DNA of 64,000 bases from Mya arenaria. Taxonomy: Eukaryota > Mollusca > Bivalvia > Myida > Myidae. A program made the position numbers and the translations under genes. Position 1 is the first letter of the stretch; the number at the start of each line of letters is the position of its first letter. Below are positions 14,873 to 51,000 of this stretch, piece by piece. The DNA lies in assembly GCF_026914265.1 (NCBI RefSeq), contig NC_069126.1, forward strand, positions 40,024,421-40,088,420, given 5' to 3'. Under the pieces are notes generated by a model, which saw only the letters and a list, made by a program, of their open reading frames with translations, was not told the DNA's origin and made no database searches.

Positions 14873-17800
14873 TTACGACTTGACAAATCCACCTTCCTTC
14901 AGTTTACCGACGAGTTCCTCAACTGACTCCACTTTCTGTCCAGCCTCTCGTGTGGGTGGGTCCTCCACTGACAAGATCTGCTGGGTGGATTTGATCTCTA
15001 CTCCTAGATCCCCAGGCTTCTTCGTGGTCAGTGATTTCTTTTTGGCTTTCTGAAGTAGGATGGTACGTGTTAATTAGTTTAATCCGTTCTCCTACACAGT
15101 GACCTCCCTTAGTGAGCAGAGAACCCTGGCACCCACATGAAAATAGCTGGAGGTCAGCTGTATAAGTTTGGGTTTTAAATATTTTTTAAAAATATATTAT
15201 AGGCCGATTTTTCAAAACTTTGTTAAAGTGAACAACGATCTGCAGTATTCCTATCAAGAGTTGAGACAACTGTTTCAGCTGTACTTGATTTATTTAAATA
15301 TATAAAAATATCATCAAATATTTCACCTTTAAAAGTCGTTAATCCCATTGTTAACTTTAATAAAGTTCTGAACAATCGGGCCAATATGTTTCATTAAAGT
15401 TCTATGAAGCAATGTCATCAAGGTAAAAAAATAAAATAAAAAAATAAACAATTAAATCATTTATTTAATTGTATCTTTTAAGTAGAATATTCTATGGCAT
15501 GATTCAAGATAGATCATTAGGTGTCAATTAATAACTAGTTTGTTTAGGGTTTCCCAACTGACTCACAAAAATACCAACGACCCCAATGGTTTTTACATTC
15601 CCGGGTGAGCATATTTGTTTTCATTACAGAATTAAGAGGTTCAAATTAAGAGTTTAAAAACAAGTTCTTACTTAACTTTGATGGTCCATCATAAGTGAAT
15701 AGTGTTGTAAATTGTACATGTTTAGTTATGTATAGTGAAGTTTTATGTAATTACCTCTATAAAATATCAATTAATTATTTATGATATTAAAAGAGTATCA
15801 CATTTGTGGTTATTCAATACTTTAAATATTAAACAGGTTTACTAAAATTGATAAAACTCACTATGGTGTTTATCACTTATAGAGAACTAGTTTAATAAAT
15901 TCCATAATGAATGACCATTCACTCATGTAACATAATCTATAAGAAAAGATTAAGCGTATAATGAACATGGGACATAGTGGTATACCATAATGTTAGGGAG
16001 GGTGGCATATCGTGGCTCATTCAAGCGTAGATCAGTAGTTATAACAGCTGGCAGCGTAATGTTGATCGTCTCCAATCCCCCATCAATCTCGCGTGTCACA
16101 TCTAAAGTACCATCCTTCTTCTCAATCTTGGACGCAAATGTTCCCTGCAAATGGAATTTGTTGGTTATGTTATACTACATATTTTTTGCAAACAGTGAAT
16201 CAATTTGATATACCGTACATATTTATGGGTATATAGTTAAGTGGCAATAAAGAATAATCAATGTAGCTCCATACAAGCCCTTTCATTTAGGATGTAATTT
16301 AAAAATCAACAGATTTGGACAAAGGTAACAAATATGCCCTGACCGTAGCTATTTATCAAAATTACTTTTTTGAAAACCACCCTGACAACTCTCATTCTTT
16401 TTCAAAAGGTCATGTGTTTTTTACATAACTTCAGCTCCTTGTATTCAAGCAAAAGGTCACCCAGCATTTACTTCAGCTCCTTGTATTCAAGCAAAAGGTC
16501 ACCCAGCATTTACTTCAGCTCCTTGTATTCAAGCTTAAGTTCAACCAGCATTAGAACAGCTCCTTGTACTCAAGCAGAAATTCCCCTATCATTTACCCAG
16601 TACTTCAGCTGTTTGTATTCAAGTAGAAGTTTGCACGTCATTTTCTTCAGCTCCTTGTATTCAAGCAGAAGTTTACCCGCCAATTACTTCAGCTCCTTGT
16701 ATTCAAGCAGAAGTTTACCCGGCATTTACTTCAGCTGCTTGAATTCAAGCAGAAGTTCACCCAACATTTACTTCAGCTCCTTGTATTCGAACAGAAGTTC
16801 ACCTGGATTTACTTCAGCTCCTTGTAGTCAAGCAGAAGTTCACCCAGCATTTACTTAAACTTCTTGAAATCAAGCTGAAGTTTTTGCTTAGCATTTACGT
16901 AAGCTTCTTATATTCAAGCAGAAGTTCACCCAGCATTAACTTGCATAAAGAACTAAGAATGAGTACCTGAGACCAATCCAGCAGAGCTGACACCATCTGA
17001 CCTGTTTGGTTACAGTCGTCATCAATGGCCTAAAACATACACACAAGTTCATATAAAGAATACATTAGGTAAGTAACTAAATATAACACAACAATCATAA
17101 TAAAAGAAATTCACAATCCTAGTCTGTAACTTTGGTTTATTTCTAGCTTAGAGATTTTTATAAATATTTTCAGCAACCGCTTTTACCATGTCCTTATCAT
17201 GTTGTCAGTTTTCTTGTTCAATATTTAAAGTTCCATGTGAAATATTACAATATTTTATTTTTTTAAATAATAGCAACACATGGAAATGAGATTGCTGTCT
17301 TAAAAAAAAAAAATCATCCAAGTCATCAATAATTCCATCAGAAAAGGTTAAAGAAGTTTTAACTAATGTACTTTATATCTGAATTTGTTAACACAGTAAT
17401 ACATAATCACTGAGACCATCAAGCTTACCTGTTTCCCAAGAATGATGAGGTCAACTTTCTCATCTGTGGCTATTTTGGCTAACAACTTGGAGACATGTAT
17501 TGGCTGCATGTTGGTGTAGTCTTTAGGGTCTACCAAGACATGGATGGCCTTGTCTGCTCCCATTGCCAGTGCTGTCCGCAGTGTCTCCTGTTTTATGGTT
17601 TTAATAAGATCTATTAAAATGATTAAACACAAATATGTCGGTAATTTAATAAATTAGATGTTTGTTGGGCAATATAGGGGGGAGATGGCAAGGTGATTGA
17701 TATCAGACTCTATAAATCAGGTATTCCTAGGTTTAATCCCAGGATAGGTAAATGATTCTCAATTGATTGCATATTTTGTAACAATATAATTAAATGTCTG

Positions 17801-27386: not shown

Positions 27387-30300
27387 ATGCGACGAGGGGA
27401 TGATGGAGATCTTAGACGTTCCCTGCTTGTGGAGGAGGGTGGGGCAGGCTACTGTAGCTATGATGATGATGAGTTACAGGCAGCTTCTCGCTTGAGACGA
27501 AAACGTCAGAGGTGAGTAATGGTTTTTCTAGTACACATACATTTTGGCTTTTTTAAATGATTTTTTGCTCTGACACTGAGGCAGTACTGAGGTGAGCTTT
27601 AGGATATTATACCTGTATTGTCAACTTATATTATATTAAAATAATATCGATGGACCTCTTTGTCCCATCCATTGTCATTTATTCTGACATAGTCAATCTT
27701 ATTTATCAACTTTGTTTATATACAGCCATTGATCAGTAAATGAAAGCACATGAGGAATTAAAGATTATTAAACGTAATTGTTAGAAACTCTTTGTAAGTC
27801 TTTTCAATTCTCTTTGTTTTATGATTGCTTGCTTTTATATGAATATGTATGATATACGGTAGTTCCCAGGTGAGCCATATAGGGCCCTCATGGCTCTCTT
27901 GTTATCATTTCTGATGTTATCATTTGTTGTACTTCTACCTATAATGTTATCAGGAAGACTGTACTTAGTTAAACAAAATGCTGATATGACTGTATTAAAC
28001 AGCAGTGTTGTATGCATTCAGTTTAAATATTCATCAATTGACATAAACAATTCTGGATTAGAGTTTTTAAGTCTCCATTTCTGAATTTAAATTTCCTGGA
28101 TAGAAATGATTCATATTTTGTTGGGATATTTTAGGAGCAAGAAAAGGTGTACATTTGTATTCTTTCCTTTCAATTGAAGCACAAACTTGTGCTAGTTACT
28201 AGTTAGCTAAAAAAACAATAAAAAATATATTTGACAGTAGTCAAGTTTTCTTGTATACATTTCGGTTAAATTAAACAATATTTATTTCAAAAACAATATT
28301 ATCAAATTCAATATATACAATTCATGAAAAGTAGTTAGACAAGAAATAAAAGCACATTACAACTGTTTGCAAATAAATTAAGTGAACCATGCTCGTCACA
28401 CAATATACTATAGCATGCAATTATTTGTACCAAAGAGACAGTCATTTTGTACTACCCAAACAGCAGCTTTGAATGATACTGCAATAGCAGTTGGCAGTAA
28501 AAAAAGAGTGTCAGCATGTTGCATTTCTTTATTCAAGTAAGTTTTTACTTACAATTTTTATTTCCACAATTATATCAACTCTGAACTGTATATACCAGAT
28601 TGCGAGCATGCTTATGGATGAGCTGTGGTGTGTTCCTAATTGCGATGGTTGGCGTTGCTGTGTTTTTTCTGACCAACTCCGCAGCAACCAAGGGGGGTAA
28701 GGGGGATAACCCCACACCAGAGATGGGCAAATACAGGCACGCTGCAGTGGCATCTGATGTGACACAATGTTCAGAAGTTGGAAGGTATGCTTAAATCATA
28801 ATCTTATGATCTTATAATGACATAAATATTTACCATACAGTTGACCCTGTTGGCTCCAATTCCCTTGGCTCGAAATCCTCGTTTGGTTGAACTGGATGTC
28901 AAGAACCGTTTTCTTTATACTGAATGTAAGCATTTGCTCGAATTTTACGAGGCTCGAGGTATTTTTGCCGGTCCCTGGGAATCGGAGCCAGCGAGGTTCA
29001 ACTGTATATAGAATATATATAGATAATGTTAACTTTTTAGATAAATCTGTATTGTCATAGTAAAAATACCAAAGTACATGCTATAGCATACTTTTTCTGT
29101 AGTGGTACACTGATATACCTGTGTGGTTATACTTGTGGAATTTACCATTTTCAGAGACATTCTAGAGAAGGCTGGAGGAAATGCTGTGGACGCTGCTGTT
29201 GCTGCCCTCTTGTGCATGGGGCTGGCTGACCCACAAAGCATGGGTATTGGAGGCGGCTTCTTTATGACCATATATAATAGGTACTACTATATATACTATA
29301 TCAGTTTTAGCTTGTCTATTATTTTTTAGCATGTCTAGTATTTTTTAGCTTGTATATTAACAATGGTTAGGTATTGTCAAAGACATGGTCATTGCCGGCA
29401 ACATGAAAAACTGACATGTTGAATATACTTGAAATTCTTTAGAGATATTAACCAAAAAATGATAAGGTTTATCATGTTCCAACTTAACAGCCAATTTCTA
29501 TTAACTCTTGATGATTCTATTTTTTCCAAGTATTTTTGCACTGACAGGAAAATTTCTTTCTAAAAGCATTTTGCAATATAACAGCATGATTAAAATCATA
29601 CTGCGATTAAATTTCTTCATCCTGTATACTGGTATTTATTTGTATACTGGTATATTGTGGCAGCCCTAATGGAGTTGTGCTGATGTTTTGTAAGTCCCCA
29701 ACTCTGTCTCTATAGTTATGTTCCTTGAAACAAACTGACTGCTGTTGGCATCCATTTGTGGTGCTCCTGTTATACTGTCACTCTGCCAGGTCTTATTATA
29801 AGGTCATTTAAATCAGAGATGTTCTCTACCCTCTAACTTAAGTTTCCATGGTAAAGAGTTGAAGGTCACTTTTGCTTAAAAGGCAATAGTTTGTTTAATC
29901 TCAGTTGATTGAAGGATCTATTTTCCAATTTTGTTATTTCCAGAACAACAGGTGAAAGCCACAGTATCGATGCCCGAGAGACTGCCCCCATACATGCCAC
30001 TGTAGACATGTACTACGGAAATGCCAGTTCCAGTAAAGGTGTGGAAATTGTATTGATATTATGTTTGTTATATGCATTTTATGGTCTTCTACACTTATTG
30101 ATAAACTGAATATTTTATTAACAGTGACTTAAACAGTTTTCATTTTGAGCTCATCTGTTTTCTGAAGAAACAAAGCATAGTGATAACCTTGGTGTTGTTC
30201 TTGTTGTTGTTATTGGCGTTTGCATAATTGTATAGGAAGAAGACTCTGGCTATAATTAATCGTTGAGTTATGCCCCTTGATTGACTGAAAAAAAGAAGAA

Positions 30301-31101
30301 ATGTTTACATTCATTCCGCGGCACACTTGTTAATTTTAATGTTGGATGTAAAGCAAAAAGGTTTAAAGTAAGTTACTTGAAGACATATCTATGGATGTGT
30401 TATTTGTAGGAGGGTTATCTATAGCAGTCCCAGGAGAAATAAAGGGCTACAAGCTTGCAATGGATAAGTTTGGGTCGTTGCCATGGAAACAGGTGTTCAC
30501 CCCAGCAGTTACCATGGCAACTGAAGGTTTCAAGGTGCCAAAATCCCTGGAAGATGCCCTCAATGACTTTAAAGCTTCACACAAAAAAGATCTTAATGAA
30601 ATTGTGAAAATGTTTCCACAGTTTGGGTGAGTTTAATTCCAAAGGCCAATATAGAACATAATTAATACATTTAATAAATAGTTGTGACTGATAAATTGTG
30701 TTGTGTTATAAATTTATATTGAAAATTAATAAGGATGTTCAGCCTAGTTGTTTTTAGTTACTGCAATATCATAGCCTTCTTGCCGTTATCTTGTTTATTG
30801 TCAGGTTTGTGAAAACCTTTTTTTTGGCGTACATTTTAAATATTAGTTTGGTGCATATCATTGTTAGGCTAAGATTTTCTACAACAACATTGTGGAACAA
30901 GTCACACACTGTTGTAAAATGGGTTTTTTAACATTAAAAAAGAAGTGTATCACATCTAAAACAAATTTGAAGTGATTCGATTCTGCTGCTGCATGCAGAG
31001 GTGTCTTTACCCGATGGCAAGGGTAAATAAGCTCAAACATGGGTTAACATTCTGCATTTAATACCAATAAAAAGTTTTTACATTGTTCTCCAAGTATCAT
31101 T

Positions 31102-31152
<51 letters not shown>

Positions 31153-34100
31153 CTGGCAAACAGTCTATGGAATACAAATGAGCGAACATTTCAATGATAC
31201 TCAATTCTCAATGGTCCAAAAGTAATTGCTCACACTAATTAACTGTAATTTCAGTAAGACTTTTGTAAACCTAGCAACGGGGGATACATACAAGCAAGGG
31301 GAGACAATTAAGATGCCAGAGCTGGGAAATACTCTTCGTGTGATATCCGAGGAGGGGCCAAAGGCATTTTATAATGGCAGTCTAACTGAAGACATTCTAC
31401 AAGAGTTTGCTGATGCAGGTTTGGAGCTTTTCAAAGTTTTGCTAGTATTTTCTGGCTTCTTAAGCACCATGACTATGAGTTTGTTTTGAAGATGAAACTT
31501 CTAAAATGTGTCTTTTGTTCAAAATTTCTTTTGAAGAAACTGCAAATATTTTACTCCTTATGAAGTTTTATGGTTAAAACAAACATTTATTTAGATTGGC
31601 TAGTTACATAACTTACATTTATTTAAAGTTGAAAGTCCGTAACAAAATAAAGCCACAGTATGTGTTTTTCTTTAAATACCCAATCCTCATACTGATCAAA
31701 AAATTCTTTTTCAGGAGCAATAATAACTAGTGAGGATTTGCTTGGTTACCAGCCCTTATTCTCGACAGCATACAACATGACACTGCGTAACAACAAGCAC
31801 ACGATCTTCACCCCACAGACACCCTCAAGTGGAGTTATCCTCATGTTTATCTTGGCTCTGCTAGATGGTGAGTGTTCTAAATTGACGCTAGAGGGTGAAA
31901 GTTCTATATTGACCTGCATGATGATGAGTGTTCTATATTGGCCTGCTAGAGGGTGAGTGTTCTATATTGGCCTGCTAGATGGTGAGTGTTCTATATTGGC
32001 CTGCTTGATGGTGAGTGTTCTATATTGGCCTGCTAGAGGGTGAGTGTTCTATATTGGCCTGCTAGAGGGTGAGTGTTCTATATTGGCCTGCTAGATGGTG
32101 AGTGTTCTATATTGGCCTGCTAGATGGTGAGTGTTCTATATTGGCTCTGCTAGATGGTGAGTGTTCTATATTGGCTCTGCTAGATGGTGAGTGTTCTATA
32201 TTGGCCTGCCAGATGGTGAGTGTTCTATATTGGCCTGCTAGATGGTGAGTGTTCTATGTTGGCTCTACTAGATGGTGAGTGTTCTATATTGGCTCTGCTA
32301 GATGGTGAGTGTTCTTTATTGGCCTGCTAGATGGAAAGTGTTCTTTATTGGCCCTGCTAGATGGTGAGTGTTCTATATTGACCTGCTAGATGGTGAGTGT
32401 TCTATATTGGCCTGCTAGAGGGTGAGTGTTCTATATTGGCCTGCTAGAGAGTGAGTGTTCTATATTGGCTCTGCTAGATGATGAGTGTTCTATATTGGTC
32501 CTGCTAGATGGTGAGTGTTCTATATTGACCTGCTAGATGATGAGTGTTCTATATTGGCCTGCTTGATGGTGAGTGTTCTATATTGGTCCTGCTAGATGGT
32601 GAGTGTTCTATATTGGCCTGCTAGATGGTGAGTGTTCTATATTGGCTCTGCTAGATGGTGAGTGTTCTATATTGGCCTGCTAGATGGTGAGTGTTCTATA
32701 TTGGCCTGCGAGAGGGTGAGTGTTCTATATTGGCCTGCTAGATGGTGAGTGTTCTATATTGGCCTGCTAGATGGTGAGTGTTCTATATTGGTCTGCTAGA
32801 TGATGAGTGTTCTATATTGGCCTGCTAGATGGTGAGTGTTCTATATTGGCTCTACTTGATGATGAGTGTTCTATATTGACGCTAGAGGGTGAGTGTTCTA
32901 TATTGGTCCTGCTAGATGGAAAGTGTTCTATATTGGCCTGCTAGATGGTGAGTGTTCTATATTGGCTCTGCTAGATGGTGAGTGTTCTATATTGGCTCTG
33001 CTAGATGGTGAGTGTTCTATATTGGCCTGCTTGATGGTGAGTGTTCTATATTGGCCTACTAGAGGGTGAGTGTTCTATATTGGCCTGCTAGATGGTGAGT
33101 GTTCTATATTGGCCTGCTAGATGGTGAGTGTTCTATATTGGCCTGCTAGAGGGTGAGTGTTCTATATTGGCCTGCTAGATGGTGAGTGTTCTATATTGGC
33201 CTGCTAGAGGGTGAGTGTTCTATATTGGCCTGCTAGATGGTGAGTGTTCTATATTGGCCTGCTAGATGGTGAGTGTTCTATATTGGCTCTGCTAGATGGT
33301 GAGTGTTCTATATTGGCTCTGCTAGATGGTGAGTGTTCTATATTGGCCTGCTAGATGGTGAGTGTTCTATGTTGGCTCTACTAGATGGTGAGTGTTCTAT
33401 ATTGGCTCTGCTAGATGGTGAGTGTTCTTTATTGGCCTGCTAGATGGAGAGTGTTCTTTATTGGCCCTGCTAGATGATGAGTGTTCTATATTGGCCTGCT
33501 AGATGGTGAGTGTTCTATATTGACCTGCTAGATGGTGAGTGTTCTATATTGGCCTGCTAGAGGGTGAGTGTTCTATATTGGCCTGCTAGAGGGTGAGTGT
33601 TCTATATTGGCTCTGCTAGATGATGAGTGTTCTATATTGGTCCTGCTAGATGGTGAGTGTTCTATATTGACCTGCTAGATGATGAGTGTTCTATATTGGC
33701 CTGCTTGATGGTGAGTGTTCTATATTGGTCCTGCTAGATGGTGAGTGTTCTATATTGGCCTGCTAGATGGTGAGTGTTCTATATTGGCTCTGCTAGATGG
33801 TGAGTGTTCTATATTGGCCTGCTAGATGGTGAGTGTTCTATATTGGCCTGCGAGTGGGTGAGTGTTCTATATTGGCCTGCTAGATGGTGAGTGTTCTATA
33901 TTGGCCTGCTAGATGGTGAGTGTTCTATATTGGTCTGCTAGATGATGAGTGTTCTATATTGGCTCTACTAGATGGTGAGTGTTCTATATTGGTCTGCTAG
34001 ATGATGAGTGTTCTATATTGGCTCTACTGGATGATGAGTGTTCTAGATATTAGGTTAAGAAATGACTGAAGTTGTTTCTTAGTACCAGCCCAGTAGTTTC

Positions 34101-37100
34101 AAACCTTAAAGAAAGTAAAGACATCACATCAACATTGTCACAAATGTTTAGAGTGTCAATATATAATATTATTTAGAACAAGTTCTATAACTCTTCCTGT
34201 ACAATTGACAGTGCCAATAAATGTATTTCAGTATACATGTGGAGCTAAAATGTTTGAATTTAATTAAGAATCTCTGATGGTATAATCAATGCACTTTAAG
34301 GTTATGACTTCAAGCCAGAAGATATCCAGACCACAAAAGGGAAGATTCTTACATACCATCGTATAATCGAGGCCTTCAAGTTTGCCTATGCGAAGAGGAC
34401 AGATCTCGCTGATGAAATGTTTGTGGATAGTGTTAAACAAGTAAGTCTTGCTCTTGATTGTTAGGTTATATGACAACTCTTATGTACATCGTTGTATATA
34501 CCTTACTATTGTAGAAATTGTCGTAACAGGTGAGGGTGGTCTAGTGGTATAGGTATATTCACTCAAGAGGTCGTTGGTTCATTTCCACCAGGGGTACATT
34601 CTCATGGCCAATTAAAATTGACCCCGGTACTTGTTTCTACTGAGGAAACTGTTAGATGGAAACTCCAGACAAGTACACTTTTGCTATATCAAATAAGACA
34701 CATTATGTTTATTTTTAACATTCCATTTAGTAAAAGCAATCAAGGTGAATGTGAATATAAAATGAGGTTTATGGTATGGCACATAATTTGTATCAGGTGT
34801 TACGATAAGTATCACTTCTCTTTAAAGTCTCCCCACTTCTCCCTAATTTTACTGAAGGGAGAAGTCACTTCTCTCTTTAGCCTAGTGATAGCCCTGAAAT
34901 GGTCTTGACAAAGATTCTATAAGCTTACATTAATCAGCTTTTGTCACAATCAAGCCAAAAGAAATTGTTATAAAGTAAATCATAAGAACTGGTGTTTTTT
35001 TTCTTAAAAATTACAATTGTTTGTATAAATTATATAGTTGTATATATTCATCATCAGATTTTAACCAAGAGAAGAATAACTCATTCTTCTGAGATACCAT
35101 TCAAATCATTTTGATGAAACTGAATTTTCTTTAAGAGATTTTTTATGGTTTTGTTAAAAAAATCGTTTAAATCATTCAGTGTTCTTTTCCTTATGTTATT
35201 TTTTGTTATGTTTTTTTAATCCAACGATTGTACAAGGAATTGTCTATATCTACACAAAGAATGTGCTTTTAAATTCCATACACTGTGTTATTCAATTTAC
35301 AGTTGGTAGCCAATCTGACATCTCCGGAGTACATTGACTCTATCCACAAGCAGATCTGGGACAATCAGACCCACCCGTTCATGTATTACGGGCCCACGTT
35401 TTACCACGACAACAAGACAAGCACAGCCCACCTGTCAATTATAGACCAATGTGGCAATGCTGTCTCTGTTACCAGCACAATTAATGCAAGGTAAAGCCAT
35501 GGCAAAGTGTTCAAAAGATGTGTGTAGAACTGGGGGCAATTTCTTAAAAGTATTTAAGTCTGTTATAACAAGATTAAAAACTAAGCTCACTCTTTTTGTT
35601 CTTCAATAAGTTGGGAAATATTTACTATTTTGAAAGTTTTTAATTGTTCATTGAATTTATCTGTCTGATAATCATGAAAAACTAAATTTTATGTATCAAA
35701 TGTAGGTTGAAGTAAGACATTTTGCTAAACAAAATAAGCTACTTAAGTCTGTTCAGCTTAAGAAGTTTCAAGAAAATAGGGTCAGGTGCGATATTCATAA
35801 AACATCTTAAGTCATTTCTTAACTTAAGTCAATTTGTCAAATTTTTCATTGTCAAATCAAAACAAAAGTATAAGGGTTTTTAAAATAAAAGTTTGTATAT
35901 TCAGTAAAATTATTGATGATTAAGAATTTCCGATATTATTTAGACATAACATGTACATCATATGATGAGTGAGGTACTTAAGTTAGGAAATGACTTAAGA
36001 TGTTAAATGAAAACTGGCCCTTGACTGTATCAGAAATTATTGCATTGTGCACGGATGTATACACAGATGTATAGACTGAGATTATCTACCGATTGGCCCA
36101 CTCTCAATGGTTGAAACATAAATCACTCTGAGTTTGAACATGAGTTATGATCTTAAACATGTTTTGTGGTGGGTGTTTTCAAACCTCACCAATGGTTATG
36201 AACAACCTTCGACACCTGTTTAGAAATTCAGACTCTGTATTATCACTGAGGAGTAAAGATCCTACGATCCCGGATTTCATTTTTTATTGATATTTTTTAT
36301 AATAATGATAGAATACTGTTTATTACGTTTTTCATGTTGTATCCTGATGAAACAGGTTTTATTCTACATCGTTACTAGAATTTACAAACTTGTCTGTATT
36401 TTGAAGAAAACAAAATGAGGTATTGTGATAGCATGCAAGGTGTCATTATCTGTGTTGGCATTATGAAATAACTTTAGCCATGGCCTTTATTCTATAACCA
36501 TTCAAGATATGCAATGAAAATTGGTATACATGTTGCGACAATACGCACGTGTACAGCAAGTCCCATTATTCTAGCTTTAATAATCATTGACATATGCCCC
36601 TTGTTTAGTCCAAATAATTGTACGTTGACTTTTCGATTTTTGATATGGCAAGAATCCCATATAACACGTCTATTATTTATATAGACTAGCCCCTTGTTAG
36701 ACTGTAATAACAACATAGGCCCAGGTTGGCATTCCTTCCACTCCCCTCTTGTTTGCTTCACATCAATTCATTTTCATGTTTAAAATATTTTTATTTCTAA
36801 GAAATTGTTTAGGTACTGACATTCATCCATTGCAGTCATTTAAAGGGATACTGAAACAGCATATTTGATATCATACCATTGCAATTTCAGGTTTGGATCA
36901 GAGGTATTTGGCAACAGAACTGGCATTATATGGAATGACGAAATGGACGACTTTGCGACATCTGACAAACCCAATGATTTTGGTCTCTATCCCTCCCCGG
37001 CGAATGAAATCACCCCAGGGAAGCGCCCTCTGTCTTCCATGTGTCCTGCTGTGTTGGTTGATTCTAATGGAGAGGTTTCGATGGTTGTCGGGGCAGCAGG

Positions 37101-38277
37101 AGGCTCCAGAATCACCACAGCAACAGCATGGGTAACTGTTATAAACATAAATATGCTTTTTAGGGCTGGTTAATAACTTTTGTTAGTTGATAACGCTTGC
37201 TGTATATAATTTTGTGTCCCCCTGCTTGGTCCAAAAACTTGCATGTGTATGTCATCAGCTATTTACTTTTCATGGGAACACATTCAGATAAATATTCAGT
37301 ACCAATTAGAAAAGTTCTGATTTTAATAGCTTCAATTGAAACCTATGTTTGGCTAATCCTTTGGCTATTTTGGTGTAATATGAATTGCTCCTTCTCGGAA
37401 TTATTTACCACTAAAGTCATCTTCAGTTGTGAATATTAAAAGGTTTCTTGCAGTTTGCAGCTAGAGTCTTGTGGGGTGGAAAATATATCAAACAAGCCAT
37501 AGACAGCCCCTGTATTAAACACGCTATAGACAGCCCCTGTAAACATGATCAGCTAGGGAAGATATTAACAAACTATTGACTGTTCCTGTATACATGATCA
37601 GCTAAGGAATAAATAAATAAGCTATGGACAACCTCTTCATACATGCTAAGCTAGGGAAGTTTACCACAAGCTAGATGGCCCCTGTATGAACATGATCAGC
37701 TGCAAGACAGCATGTCCCAAACTCTGTCAGAAATACAGTATTCCTTTCCTGATATCCCAATATTGACCATATTAATGGTGTTTTTGCAGGTTGCAACTCG
37801 AGTTTTATGGCTTGGAGAAAGTATAAAGCAATCTATAGACAGCCCTCGCATACATCATCAGCTGTTACCCCCAGAGTTTTCATATGAACCAGGCATAGAA
37901 AAGGTATGTGTGATGGAATGTTTTGAAACTTCTTTAGTGTCGACAGGTATAGATGCTGGGGCCGTGAACAGTCTCAAGTCTTAGTCTGAAAATTGGACTC
38001 AGTCTCAGCAGCTGAGTTTAAGTCCGGTTTCAGTAATGTTTCAGAATAATTTTGAGAATATGAGATTGTACTATAACGAGAAGTTAATACATTTTCAAAT
38101 CACTCCTTAAACTTTCTATCCTTCTTGCAGGCAGTTATCGACGGCTTAGTTGCACTGGGCCACAATGCCACACAAGTATCACCTGGAAAGTCCATAGTGC
38201 AGGGGGTTACACGAGGAGGAGACTTCCTGTACGCTTACAGTGATGCCCGTAAGGGTGGGACGCCTGCAGGGTTCTAA
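27387..38277 (+). CDS. Gamma-glutamyltransferase (GGT1/GGT5-like), complete, 12 coding exons
   Basis: Exons: 27387-27511, 28599-28784, 29155-29280, 29944-30038, 30410-30626, 31255-31418, 31715-31867, 34301-34440, 35303-35490, 36891-37131, 37790-37903, 38131-38277. All are GT-AG and in phase, giving 631 aa (human GGT1 569). The enzyme is an Ntn-hydrolase that cleaves or transfers the gamma-glutamyl group of glutathione at the cell surface. Visible: a ~48-residue cytoplasmic tail ending [10 protein letters not shown], one membrane segment about 49-67 (type II), [38 protein letters not shown] (substrate arginine 157), then the autocleavage/nucleophile threonine 443 in STAHLS, TSTIN, NDEMDDF (Glu482, Asp485), PLSSMCP (Ser513, Ser514), [23 protein letters not shown], and the C-terminal KGGTPAGF. 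The ATG at 27387 is the first after three in-frame stops. Orthology to GGT1 or GGT5 is not resolved. Intron 7 is a giant splice-site minisatellite. Confidence 0.97.
28838..29004. mobile_element. 167 bp TA-flanked MITE in GGT intron 2
   Basis: The left end CAGTTGACCCTGTTGGCTCC and the right end, reversed, CAGTTGAACCTCGCTGGCTC are inverted repeats, and each end is flanked by TA (28836-28837, 29005-29006). This fits a Tc1/mariner-type MITE. It is short and has no coding capacity. Confidence 0.75.
31106..31149. repeat. (TA)n microsatellite in GGT intron 5
   Basis: About 22 uninterrupted TA units, roughly 100 bp upstream of the exon 6 acceptor. Confidence 0.9.
31868..34045 (+). repeat. Splice-donor minisatellite filling GGT intron 7 (29-30 bp unit, ~70 copies)
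   Basis: The array starts at the exon 7 donor and fills about 2.2 kb of the 2.4 kb intron. The unit is TTGGCTCTGCTAGATG followed by GTGAGTGTTCTATA (30 bp), with a common 29 bp form having GGCCTG in place of GGCTCTG. The first 16 bases are the end of exon 7 and the next are its donor, so each full unit is a copy of the exon-intron junction. Most copies keep GGTGAGT; some have GATGAGT, which destroys the donor. A second-level duplication is visible: a TTCTTTATTGGCC.TGCTAG block at 32312 recurs at 33425, and TGCGAG at about 32707 recurs at about 33849. Confidence 0.95.
34530..34602 (+). mobile_element. tRNA-like SINE head in GGT intron 8
   Basis: GAGGGTGGTCTAGTGGTATA (A box) and GGTCGTTGGTTCATTTCCAC (B box) have tRNA-like spacing, resembling tRNA-Gly or tRNA-Val derived SINEs. 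The stem arms do not pair well. Confidence 0.5.
35532..35785. mobile_element. Palindromic MITE (CTTAAG family), degenerate copy
   Basis: The left end reads GGGGGCAATTTCTTAAAAGT and the right end AGCTTAAGAAGTTTCAAGAA then AATAGGGTC. The arms are imperfect inverses rich in CTTAAG-like motifs. It is related to the better preserved element at 53573-53823. Located in GGT intron 9. Confidence 0.5.
35786..36020. mobile_element. Palindromic MITE (TTCATAAAACATCTTAAGT family)
   Basis: Left arm: GCGATATTCATAAAACATCT, then TAAGTCATTTCTTAACTTAAG. The right arm is its near inverse (CTTAAGTTAGGAAATGACTT, then AAGATGTTAAATGAAAAC). It abuts the element at 35532-35785. Relatives lie at 52784-53022 and 57031-57289. 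Confidence 0.65.
37454..37715 (+). pseudogene. Decayed, internally amplified duplicate of GGT exon 11
   Basis: After a good acceptor (TTTCTTGCAG, ending 37453) the sequence reads [20 protein letters not shown], close to the true exon 11 ([20 protein letters not shown], 37790 on). It then degenerates: the IDSP-to-HDQL part is repeated about five times (near 37497, 37525, 37574, 37622 and 37671; marks CCCCTGTA and ACATGATCAGCT). In the phase left by exon 10 it stops at 37577-37579 after 41 codons, so inclusion would truncate the protein before its conserved C-terminus. Confidence 0.8.
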
Positions 38278-48086: not shown

Positions 48087-51000
48087 TCATATATTAATGC
48101 CAGCCAAGAGTTCTTGACACATCTGTTGATAAGTGCCTTTATCTCCAGATATTCGCCGCACTTGAAGGCGACTTGCGTCCACTCCTTCACAAACCTCAAC
48201 CTCCATTGCAACGTCTGAGTTTGCTAACCGAAAACAATTGTCTGAGCACTTGTACGCTATTTGAGGCCCGCTCTGTTCGAGAATTTTACGAATCTCATTA
48301 AGAATATCTTCCACTGATCTTTTTGAAGAAACATTCACATAAGATCCAACTTTCGTCAATTCATAACCCCCACCAACACCAAGAGATTGAGAATGGCCAC
48401 TGCTGTCATCTGATTGGCTACTTGCTCGATACAATCCCACAATGCCTTCATTGCTAATCTCCCAACTTCCTGGTGAAGATGAGATAGCAGATTGAGCGTT
48501 ATAATTGGTTAATGACCTATTATCAGTAGAGTCATGTAAACCATGTAGTTTTTGCAAATAAGCTTCTTCTGGGTTGTACCAGTTCTTATTTGAAGTTTGA
48601 TAATAACTTTGTGGACAGACGGTAACTTTTGTTTCCGTTGGAATGTTTGCAATATTTGAATGCATATACGTACCGTATTGAGGAGCAAAATTATAATTGA
48701 AAGCTACACTACTGCTCAGTGGCAATGAGATGGGGGAACTCGGAGAAACCATTGCACTGTTAGAGTTATCCCCCTTCTCTGACTCAGAGTCACCGTCAGA
48801 GGTCACAGCAGTCACATGACCTTGAGTGTCTGTGATGCTAATCTGCGGCTTTTTCCCAAACGCCGGCTGCTGAGTTGCATTGGCGGGGAGTTTATTATCA
48901 CCAATATCCTGCACAACCATTTCTTCCTCGCTGTCCGATTGTGAACTTTTATCGAGGTCGAGAGAGTCCTCTTTGATCATCTGAAGATTCTGGAAGTTGG
49001 GTGGCGGGCTCGATCGCTGATGACCTTGACCCATATTTTGCAGAATGTTAGGAAATGACTGAGGCGTGTTCTCCGAGGACGATAACTGGGCGAGATTTGG
49101 AGGGCTACTTCGGCGGAATGTCGGGGAGCCCGCTCGTCGAATCTGCTGCGTAAGCTGAAGTCGCTGTAGATGTTGGTAGAGTTGCCCGCTCCCTCCGTCT
49201 GGGCTTGCGGGGCTCCGCTGTTGGAACACTGGGGACCCGGGTGCCCCAAACGGGGATACTGCCGCCCCAAACGGGGAGACGGGCGCCCCGAACGGAGAAA
49301 CTGGGGGCGAGGGGATCCTCGTTGCTGACATGCTCACAGGACGGTTCTGCCCAAGCCGATGTAATGTGTGGTGATCCAGACTCCCCCCACTTACTTGTTT
49401 CTGTAAGGAAAAATAATACAAGGTTCATATATCATCACCGTTTATTATTTTCTCGAGAGATAAAAAGGAAAATAATGAGAAAGTGAATCATCAGAATGTT
49501 GGAACATATGTGTAATGATTTTTAACATTTTTTTAAAGCAAATGAAAATCCATCTGGATTCTGTACTTGCAAAAATGAATTAAAGAATAAACTTTAAAAA
49601 GATAAATATCATATATAATATACTTTAATATTAAAAAAAAATGAGCAAATAACCTTTACTAGAACATATTTGCATTAAAATATTGAACAGATTAACACAT
49701 GAAATATGTTTAGATCAACAGGTTTAATTACAAATTTGTACTTTAACCATCAGATTTTCTGTTTATGAAGGCATCTCTATAAAATATAATCATAATCTGA
49801 CTATTGGATGAGAGATGAATACAATAGGAGAGGAATTTTAAGGTAAGATTTTCTGTGAATAATGAAGACTCTGGATTATCAGAAACAAGAAATAATCTGT
49901 ACATATTTTTCCATGCTAAGTACATGCAGCTAAGTCCTAATTTCTGTGTCATGCCCTTTTACTCTTTAGAAATAAAGTAAAAGTTAAAGCCGGAACCATG
50001 TTTTTAAATCTATGAACATGTTACGTGAATGTGGTTACCAGTTGTCAAAGAAGTCCCAAAAAACTTGGCTTTTGAAAGATGCTGCAAGAAATCAAATAAT
50101 GTCTTTACATTTAAAAACCATCAGGAACATGTAGAATTTTGATCTGATTTATAGCAATCAAAACTAGAGTGATCACAGGATTGATGAATACCCCAAGACT
50201 TTGTCTAAAAATTTCATAAATCACTGTTTAAGGTATAAAACTTGAGGGATCACAGGATTGATGGATACCCCAAGACCTTGCCTAGACACAAGAATTTAAA
50301 CATTTCAACAATCAATGTTAAAGGTATCAAGTGTTGTTGTTTTTTTATTTTTGCAGAGGTACATTACCTGTCAAAAACAGTTAAGTCAGCAATTTGCAAA
50401 CATTTCATCAAACCTCATGTCTGACATTTTCCTCATGTGAAAGCTTACCTTAAACAATCTTTGTTCAAGATATTGTAATCAAATTTAACAAGCTAATGTA
50501 GTTTATTTCAGATCTCCTCAAGGGGAATAATTCCAGATATAGTTCAATCATCATGATGTGACTGCATGCCAGCAATGGCCTGTCTAACATGAACCTATAT
50601 GTTAAGTTTGATAAACATAATAAGTAGGAAATTCAATGACAAGTTAGGCAGTTCAGACAGGATCTTTCTCTTTTTATTTCAAGAAGGGGAATAACTCTTG
50701 ATATACTTGAGTCAGAATGATGCGTTAGCATCTTTTTTTCTCACATGTACCTGTGAATGTGTAAAGTTTCATGAAATTTCAACCATCCTTCAAGATATTC
50801 CATTATGATGAAAATGTGGAAATTGACAGGAGAGAATGGAATGTGACATGCCTAGCTCCTACACAGCCCCCTAGATATTCATCTTTGGGGCTTTAATAAA
50901 TCTGAATACATCTTTAAAAATCCAGTCACTATCATATTGATATGCCTTAACATAAACAATCATTTCATTTTAAGATAGCAAGAGCCATTTTGGATGGCAT

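What the first reader, a model, noticed from the sequence alone, without database searches (positions are those of the whole stretch)
31852..34045. A 5' splice site amplified about 70-fold inside its own intron
The minisatellite unit is the exon 7/intron 7 junction of GGT: TTGGCTCTGCTAGATG (the last 16 coding bases, encoding the conserved LALLDG) followed by GTGAGTGTTCTATA. Since the exon end is fixed by protein conservation (LILALLDGYDF in the family), the direction is clear: the junction seeded the array. Most units keep a full GGTGAGT donor, so the pre-mRNA offers dozens of equal 5' splice sites in a row. That poses a choice problem for U1 and might serve as a U1-binding platform (for example, protection from early polyadenylation) or be a splicing hazard that is tolerated because the real acceptor lies far downstream. 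Function is inference; the repeat and its origin are visible.
Basis: partly seen in the sequence, partly recalled or inferred. Interest (0 to 1): 0.88.

Follow-up and report, generated by a model that had tools for sequence, protein, structure and literature searches.

The report
Splice-donor minisatellite in a clam gene
In a soft-shell clam enzyme gene, the short stretch where an exon meets its intron has been copied about 74 times inside that intron, leaving dozens of extra splice signals; the same kind of thing is known from amphioxus and a few human genes, and it looks like tolerated repeat growth rather than a device.

Summary
The gene is gamma-glutamyltransferase 1 of Mya arenaria; a 12-exon model translates exactly to the public protein. 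From the exon 7 donor at 31868 a 29/30-bp minisatellite of 75 units (real junction plus 74 copies) fills 89.5% of intron 7; 61 of 75 units keep GT, 59 of 75 an exact GGTGAGT. The junction seeded it: one 25-mer search of the 1.2-Gb genome hit only this array (22 of 22), and in the 6 of 8 paralogue stretches where exon 7 was found the exon ends at the same place without an array. A U1 platform is not supported: donor columns are no more conserved than the rest. Joined to exon 8, 59 of 61 GT donors give a stop. The two Mya protein models seen use the first donor. The kind is known: amphioxus 'mirage' minisatellites, said not to disturb regular splicing, and human ABCA7, CBS and IFI6. Best reading: a recently expanded, nearly neutral mirage-type array with the exon-proximal donor dominant. 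No RNA reads were available.

The parts
27387..38277 (+). GGT1 coding region, 12 exons (27387-27511, 28599-28784, 29155-29280, 29944-30038, 30410-30626, 31255-31418, 31715-31867, 34301-34440, 35303-35490, 36891-37131, 37790-37903, 38131-38277)
   Evidence: Spliced translation equals P0001 letter for letter; Pfam PF01019 on exons 7-8
31715..31867 (+). Exon 7, ending TTGGCTCTGCTAGATG (LALLDG)
   Evidence: homology to human GGT1
31868..31873 (+). Real 5' splice site GTGAGT of intron 7 (unit 0)
   Evidence: the two Mya protein models seen join here
31868..34045 (+). Minisatellite of 29/30-bp junction copies, 74 after the real junction, 89.5% of intron 7
31895..31900 (+). First copy donor, GTGAAA; if used it adds nine codons in frame (ECSKLTLEG) without a stop
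31953..31958 (+). First full decoy donor (GGTGAGT), 85 nt past the real one
31959..32808 (+). Block A (units 4-32) of a recent block duplication
   Evidence: 842 matches, 7 mismatches, 31 gap columns to block B
33072..33950 (+). Block B (units 42-71)
34216..34221 (+). Only AATAAA/ATTAAA in intron 7, 171 nt past the array
34301..34440 (+). Exon 8 (140 nt; skipping it shifts the frame, stop at residue 367)

Best explanation
This is a mirage-type minisatellite. A 30-bp segment straddling the exon 7/intron 7 junction of clam GGT1 (16 exon bases plus 14 intron bases) was tandemly duplicated. The 30-bp unit is a multiple of three and open in the exon frame ([10 protein letters not shown]), so early steps did little harm whichever donor was used (inference). 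A one-base-shorter 29-bp form then became the commonest, the array grew by slippage or unequal exchange, and a block of about 30 units doubled recently. In the pre-mRNA the array is intron: the first donor, which bounds exon 7, is used in most transcripts, and the copies are decoys of about equal U1 match. When a decoy is used, a stop codon nearly always enters and the transcript should be destroyed by nonsense-mediated decay. The array is therefore tolerated, not selected for its donors. Shown: gene, array, origin, lack of donor constraint, coding outcome of each donor. Inferred: which donor the cell uses, decay of misspliced RNA, neutrality.
For: Array structure. The 25-mer of the 30-bp form confined to this array in 1.216 Gb: 22 of 22 matches. 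Family-wide conserved exon end. In 6 of 8 paralogue stretches fetched exon 7 was found; by alignment it ends at the same place with GT, no array starts there, and no GGTRAGT lies in the next 400 nt (three of the six are near-identical copies). P0001 and P0002 join LALLDG directly to YDF. 59 of 61 GT donors give a stop when joined to exon 8. Donor columns mean minor-base fraction 0.037 against 0.032 for the other 20 columns, p 0.44; 0.087 against 0.074 among 23 distinct types, p 0.37. Block duplication: 842 of 849 aligned bases identical, 31 gap columns; unit-order score 59.8 against at most 13.9 in 40 shuffles. [quoted passage not shown]
Against: No RNA reads were available, so first-donor use rests on gene models that may have been shaped by protein homology; P0002 lacks several exon stretches, and two of the three sequences in the P0001 cluster were not seen. 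Nothing I computed favours the first donor: its U1 duplex is matched or beaten by 58 of 74 copies, and it is not more accessible in predicted RNA folds (0.0001 against an array median of 0.0004). A recalled in-vitro rule (duplicated donors, both bound by U1, favour the intron-proximal one; Eperon 1993, seen only as a reference) predicts the opposite. In ABCA7 longer arrays go with lower expression and more skipping of the next exon, and in 90% of one brain area's cases the alternative transcripts together exceeded the canonical one, so neither neutrality nor first-donor dominance is assured.
Confidence: 0.72

Rival explanations
1. Length-dependent rheostat, as proposed by analogy with human ABCA7: the longer the array, the more exon 8 skipping or other loss, so array length sets GGT1 expression and varies between clams.
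For: Same anatomy as the ABCA7 VNTR, where length goes with exon 19 skipping and lower expression (PMC5954066, passages). Decoy use and exon 8 skipping both break the reading of the protein here. The recent block duplication suggests an unstable length.
Against: No expression or population data. In ABCA7 one-unit retention did not change with length and no length effect on decay was seen. Donor columns show no constraint. Amphioxus mirages are said not to disturb regular splicing.
Confidence: 0.15
2. U1-binding platform: dozens of U1 snRNPs on the array block premature cleavage and polyadenylation in the gene.
For: 58 of 74 copies pair with U1 at least as well as the real donor; one AATAAA lies 171 nt past the array.
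Against: Donor columns no more conserved than the rest, +1 G changed in 11 of 74 copies. Intron 7 has one poly(A) signal word, intron 1 has eight and no array. The six paralogue exon 7 ends seen have no array.
Confidence: 0.05
3. The array is an ordinary minisatellite that arose or landed beside the exon and overwrote its end, rather than being seeded by it.
For: Tandem GGTGAGT triples are common genome-wide: 4555 matches against 3535 for the reversed control pattern. The two residues under the shared 16 bases, A352 and L353, are rare in the family (1 of 117 and 2 of 117).
Against: The 30-bp form is not found elsewhere (the search for the 29-bp form did not complete); exon phase, DG-Y and intron position are family features. 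Dreissena also departs at 352 (G), so that change may predate the array.
Confidence: 0.05
4. The block duplication, or part of the array length, is an assembly artefact (two haplotypes joined).
For: Blocks differ at 7 of 849 aligned bases plus 31 gap columns, a difference that could be allelic; the genome paper speaks of high heterozygosity in bivalves (PMC10663159, passages).
Against: Assembled from PacBio reads with a diploid-aware pipeline. Even with one block removed more than 40 units remain (75 less 30).
Confidence: 0.12

Closest known systems
Mirage minisatellites of amphioxus (Adh3; globin genes BflGb6 and BflGb9)
   Same: Minisatellite-like tandem duplications spanning an exon-intron boundary; Adh3 units 10-72 bp; many copies keep splice signals; length-unstable, homogenised inside, divergent at the edges; data suggest regular splicing is not disturbed (PMC3087553, passages). 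Closest in kind.
   Different: BflGb6 repeats an acceptor side (intron end plus exon 2 start) in 150-160 bp units, 3 or 6 copies; here a donor side, 29/30 bp, 74 extra copies. The Adh3 papers themselves were not read.
CBS 31-bp VNTR c.1444_1467+7 (human)
   Same: By its HGVS name the unit spans the last 24 bases of an exon and the first 7 of the intron, so each unit carries exon end plus donor; 16-21 units (PMC2630376, passages).
   Different: Fewer units; split 24+7 instead of 16+14. Splice use of the copies was not read here (Lievers 2001 seen only as a reference).
ABCA7 intron 18 VNTR (human)
   Same: Tandem repeat starting at the exon donor, each 25-bp unit opening with the GT; one-unit retention gives a frameshift (PMC5954066, passages).
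   Different: Unit starts at the GT, so no exon bases; C-rich; 12 to about 427 units; disease and expression data exist. Alternative transcripts can outnumber the canonical one in brain.
IFI6 (6-16, G1P3) minisatellite (human)
   Same: Minisatellite that provides multiple splice donors; two downstream repeat units are used, giving three mRNAs (PMC4526556, passages, citing Turri 1995). Turri 1995 itself not held.
   Different: About 12-bp units (recalled); downstream donors make isoforms, whereas here 59 of 61 GT donors give a stop.
Intron gain or junction change by internal tandem repeats (PMC2812944; PMC4974935)
   Same: Tandem duplication at exon-intron boundaries alters gene structure (PMC2812944 passages; PMC4974935 seen only in the listing).
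   Different: No new intron here: intron 7 is old and only lengthened.

Membership tests
Mirage / junction-spanning minisatellite (amphioxus, CBS, ABCA7, IFI6) | Tandem array spans a real exon-intron junction | tested here: met
   Array begins in exon 7 and continues from 31868; gene model equals P0001
Mirage / junction-spanning minisatellite (amphioxus, CBS, ABCA7, IFI6) | Copies carry the splice signal | tested here: met
   61 of 75 GT, 59 of 75 GGTGAGT
Mirage / junction-spanning minisatellite (amphioxus, CBS, ABCA7, IFI6) | Copies carry exon bases (mirage and CBS forms) | tested here: met
   Exact 16 exon bases 12 times in the array
Mirage / junction-spanning minisatellite (amphioxus, CBS, ABCA7, IFI6) | Inside homogenised, edges divergent | tested here: met
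   Units 1, 2 and 71, 73, 74 lack GTGAGT (chance 0.039 and 0.025); block copy
Mirage / junction-spanning minisatellite (amphioxus, CBS, ABCA7, IFI6) | Regular splicing kept, or copies used as alternative donors | not testable with these tools
   No RNA reads; the two protein models seen use the first donor
Mirage / junction-spanning minisatellite (amphioxus, CBS, ABCA7, IFI6) | Length polymorphism | not testable with these tools
   One assembly only
U1 platform (telescripting) | Donor motif conserved above the rest of the unit | tested here: not met
   0.037 against 0.032 mean minor fraction, p 0.44
U1 platform (telescripting) | Protects downstream poly(A) signals | not testable with these tools
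   One AATAAA at 34216
Introner-like mobile intron | Copies dispersed in the genome | tested here: not met
   22 of 22 matches of the 30-bp form in this array
Recursive (ratchet) splice sites | AG immediately followed by GT | tested here: not met
   Typical units read TAG-ATG-GTGAGT: three bases lie between AG and GT

The most novel reading that the evidence does not exclude
The array is a splicing rheostat: its copy number, which can change by whole blocks, sets how often splicing goes astray and hence how much full-length GGT1 a clam makes, giving natural variation in glutathione metabolism. The array may also feed back on the exon by gene conversion (two rare residues, A352 and L353, lie exactly under the shared 16 bases).
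Probability: 0.12. Interest if true: 0.65.

Novelty: new member of a known kind. Interest (0 to 1): 0.35.

Why it matters
It is a natural construct for an old question: when one exon is followed by dozens of donors of about equal U1 match, which is chosen, and by what rule? RNA from six tissues of the reference clam has been sequenced (PMC10663159), so the answer can be read directly. It also suggests how a junction can become a minisatellite: an in-frame open unit first, a frameshifted unit later.

Tried and rejected
Secondary structure hiding the decoys: rejected. Unpaired probability is tiny for the real donor and the copies alike; the consensus unit repeated ten times is not unusually stable (29 of 150 shuffled units fold at least as well), although 301 nt at the array start fold with z -2.5.

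Weak acceptor of intron 7: not supported. Its pyrimidine fraction 0.59 is shared by five of the other ten acceptors computed; only its AAG (the others CAG or TAG) is unusual.

Selection against near decoys: the first two copies are defective (chance 0.039), but so are three of the last four (0.025), so ordinary edge decay suffices.

Array written back into the exon: weak; see rivals. RNA families: no Rfam match in the window. BLAST self-comparison of the array was uninformative and was replaced by unit-level alignment. Paper searches: of the non-human papers listed I looked at passages of four: amphioxus globins (the closest precedent), earthworm metallothionein (intron minisatellite, donor overlap not stated in the passages), schistosome mucins and seabream myostatin. 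I make no claim that bivalve cases are unpublished. Genome-wide counts of AGGTAAGT triples and of the 29-bp unit at 3 mismatches were asked but did not complete.

Full report
What is there. The window is part of a 1.216-Gb genome in 18 contigs, and the gene's public protein is Mya arenaria glutathione hydrolase 1 proenzyme-like isoform X2 (P0001). Size and contig number fit the published reference of 1.22 Gb and 17 chromosomes (PMC10663159, passages). A 12-exon model, 27387-38277, translates to P0001 exactly. Exon 7 (31715-31867) ends ...ATC TTG GCT CTG CTA GAT G and exon 8 begins at 34301. Pfam PF01019 and human GGT1 structures match across this junction.

The array. TRF reports 31844-34045, period 29, 75.2 copies. 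Cutting at the GTTCT word gives 75 units, unit 0 being the real junction; 48 spacings are 29 bp, 24 are 30, two are 27, so no unit was missed by the cut. GT at +1/+2 is kept in 61 of 75, exact GGTGAGT in 59 of 75. The array is 89.5% of the 2433-nt intron; outside it the + strand of the window has six GGTRAGT words. The pattern is far beyond chance (74 matches, 0.04 expected).

Origin. Three lines agree that the junction seeded the array. First, the exon end is a family feature: in 118 homologues the positions read mostly F/L-I-L-N-I-L-D-G-Y. Second, the 25-mer TTGGCTCTGCTAGATGGTGAGTGTT with up to two mismatches has 22 matches in the genome, all in this array and none reversed. That search sees the 30-bp form; the one for the 29-bp form did not complete, and the tool's counts are lower bounds. 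Third, of eight paralogue stretches fetched, exon 7 was found in six; placed by alignment, it ends at the same codon position followed by GT (donors GTGAGT three times, GTCAGT, GTTAGT, GTAAGT), with no array starting there and no GGTRAGT in the next 400 nt. Three of the six (L022, L023, L026) are near-identical copies, so these are about four independent cases. An exon 8-like motif lies 227 nt past the donor in those three and 305 nt in L021, against 2486 in the window gene; it was not found in L024 and L025. TRF finds no repeat in L021; the others hold repeats, but away from this junction. The 3' edge of the array runs from GTGAGTGTTCTA into unique intron, which fits a seed of 16 exon plus 14 intron bases (read; inference).

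How it grew. The 30-bp form is in frame and open (...[24 protein letters not shown]... in the ORFs), so either donor would have been tolerable at first (inference). The commonest unit is now a 29-bp form (21 of 74), and with it come stops. Units 4-32 and 42-71 are a recent block copy: 842 matches, 7 mismatches, 31 gap columns; unit-order alignment scores 59.8 against a maximum of 13.9 in 40 shuffles.

What it does to splicing. By U1 pairing the copies equal the real donor: 58 of 74 have duplex energy at or below -11.1 kcal/mol, and the real donor is the strongest of the nine donors of the gene that were computed, of 11. Folding does not separate real donor from copies. If a GT donor is joined to exon 8, 59 of 61 bring a stop within exons 7-8 as joined; the exceptions are the real donor and 31895, a poor GTGAAA that would insert nine residues. 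Skipping exon 8 (140 nt) stops at residue 367. The two Mya models seen, P0001 and the GGT1-like P0002, join LALLDG to YDF with no array residues; P0002 lacks several exon stretches, so it is weak evidence. The genome paper annotated with MAKER using RNA-seq; I take P0002 to come from that set (inference). No junction reads were seen.

Selection. Over the 27 columns aligned without gaps (the C/T indel columns left out), the seven donor columns have mean minor-base fraction 0.037 and the other 20 have 0.032 (p 0.44); among 23 distinct types 0.087 and 0.074 (p 0.37). The +1 G (0.15) is second only to the -2 position (0.19). That speaks against a maintained U1 platform. The two copies next to the real donor are defective, but so are three of the last four, so edge decay is enough.

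Results against the reading. Nothing in the sequence singles out the first donor by strength or accessibility. Tandem GGTGAGT triples are common in this genome: 2307 + 2248 matches, against 1976 + 1559 for the reversed control; the listing shows only the first places on one contig, but it suggests that arrays with donor words are mostly ordinary minisatellites here, and what is special is the exon origin. Residues 352-353 (AL) are rare in the family (1 of 117 and 2 of 117 others), which could hint that the array has altered the exon, but P0001 departs at 14 of 156 conserved positions, Dreissena also at 14, and Dreissena also departs at 352. In human ABCA7 the alternative transcripts together exceeded the canonical one in 90% of cases of one brain area.

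Comparison with the known. The closest kind is the 'mirage' of amphioxus: minisatellite-like tandem duplications of exon-intron boundaries in Adh3 (units 10-72 bp) and globin genes, length-unstable, with cluster edges escaping homogenisation, and with data suggesting that regular splicing goes on although many copies hold splice signals (PMC3087553, passages). In human CBS a 31-bp VNTR named c.1444_1467+7 spans exon end and donor, 16-21 units (PMC2630376, passages). In human ABCA7 a 25-bp VNTR begins with the exon 18 donor, ranges from 12 to about 427 units, and its length goes with exon 19 skipping and lower expression; one-unit retention is one of three alternative events and did not change with length (PMC5954066, passages). 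In human IFI6 a minisatellite provides several used donors (PMC4526556, passages; Turri 1995 is not held). The clam array is the same kind of object, with more copies than the CBS alleles, the ABCA7 reference allele or the amphioxus globin cases.

Verdict. Its value is as a ready natural test of donor choice.

Noticed in passing
37433-37576 and 37650-37763: Between exons 10 and 11 lie what look like decayed copies of exon 11 (frames with ...[19 protein letters not shown]... and ...[19 protein letters not shown]...), with a 27-bp repeat at 37486-37541.
   Followed up: no
L022:545-2193, L023:564-1897, L026:505-1466: Three GGT paralogue stretches on contig C2 carry an unrelated 34-35 bp minisatellite; in L022 it lies downstream of the exon 8-like frame, its gene-strand unit contains GTAAGA, and it does not start at the exon end.
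   Followed up: partly
L025:3884-8087: Another GGT paralogue on C15 has a 25-bp array of 168 copies about 440 bp past its exon 7 donor.
   Followed up: no
31852-31867: The two codons GCT CTG (A352, L353) under the array-shared 16 bases are rare in the GGT family (1 of 117 and 2 of 117), whereas the six Mya paralogue stretches with exon 7 have N-I there.
   Followed up: partly
16428-16942: A 42-bp minisatellite whose + strand translation ([12 protein letters not shown]...) appears in the N-terminus of the GGT1-like model P0002, probably an annotation error.
   Followed up: no
48087-49424: Long minus-strand open frame of 445 aa, serine/proline-rich, whose C-terminus resembles a kinase-associated KA1 domain (recalled, not tested).
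   Followed up: no
L029-L048 (genome contig C1): Tandem arrays with GGTGAGT in units of about 12-41 bp appear repeatedly on contig C1 of the Mya genome; whether any others start at an exon end was not tested.
   Followed up: no
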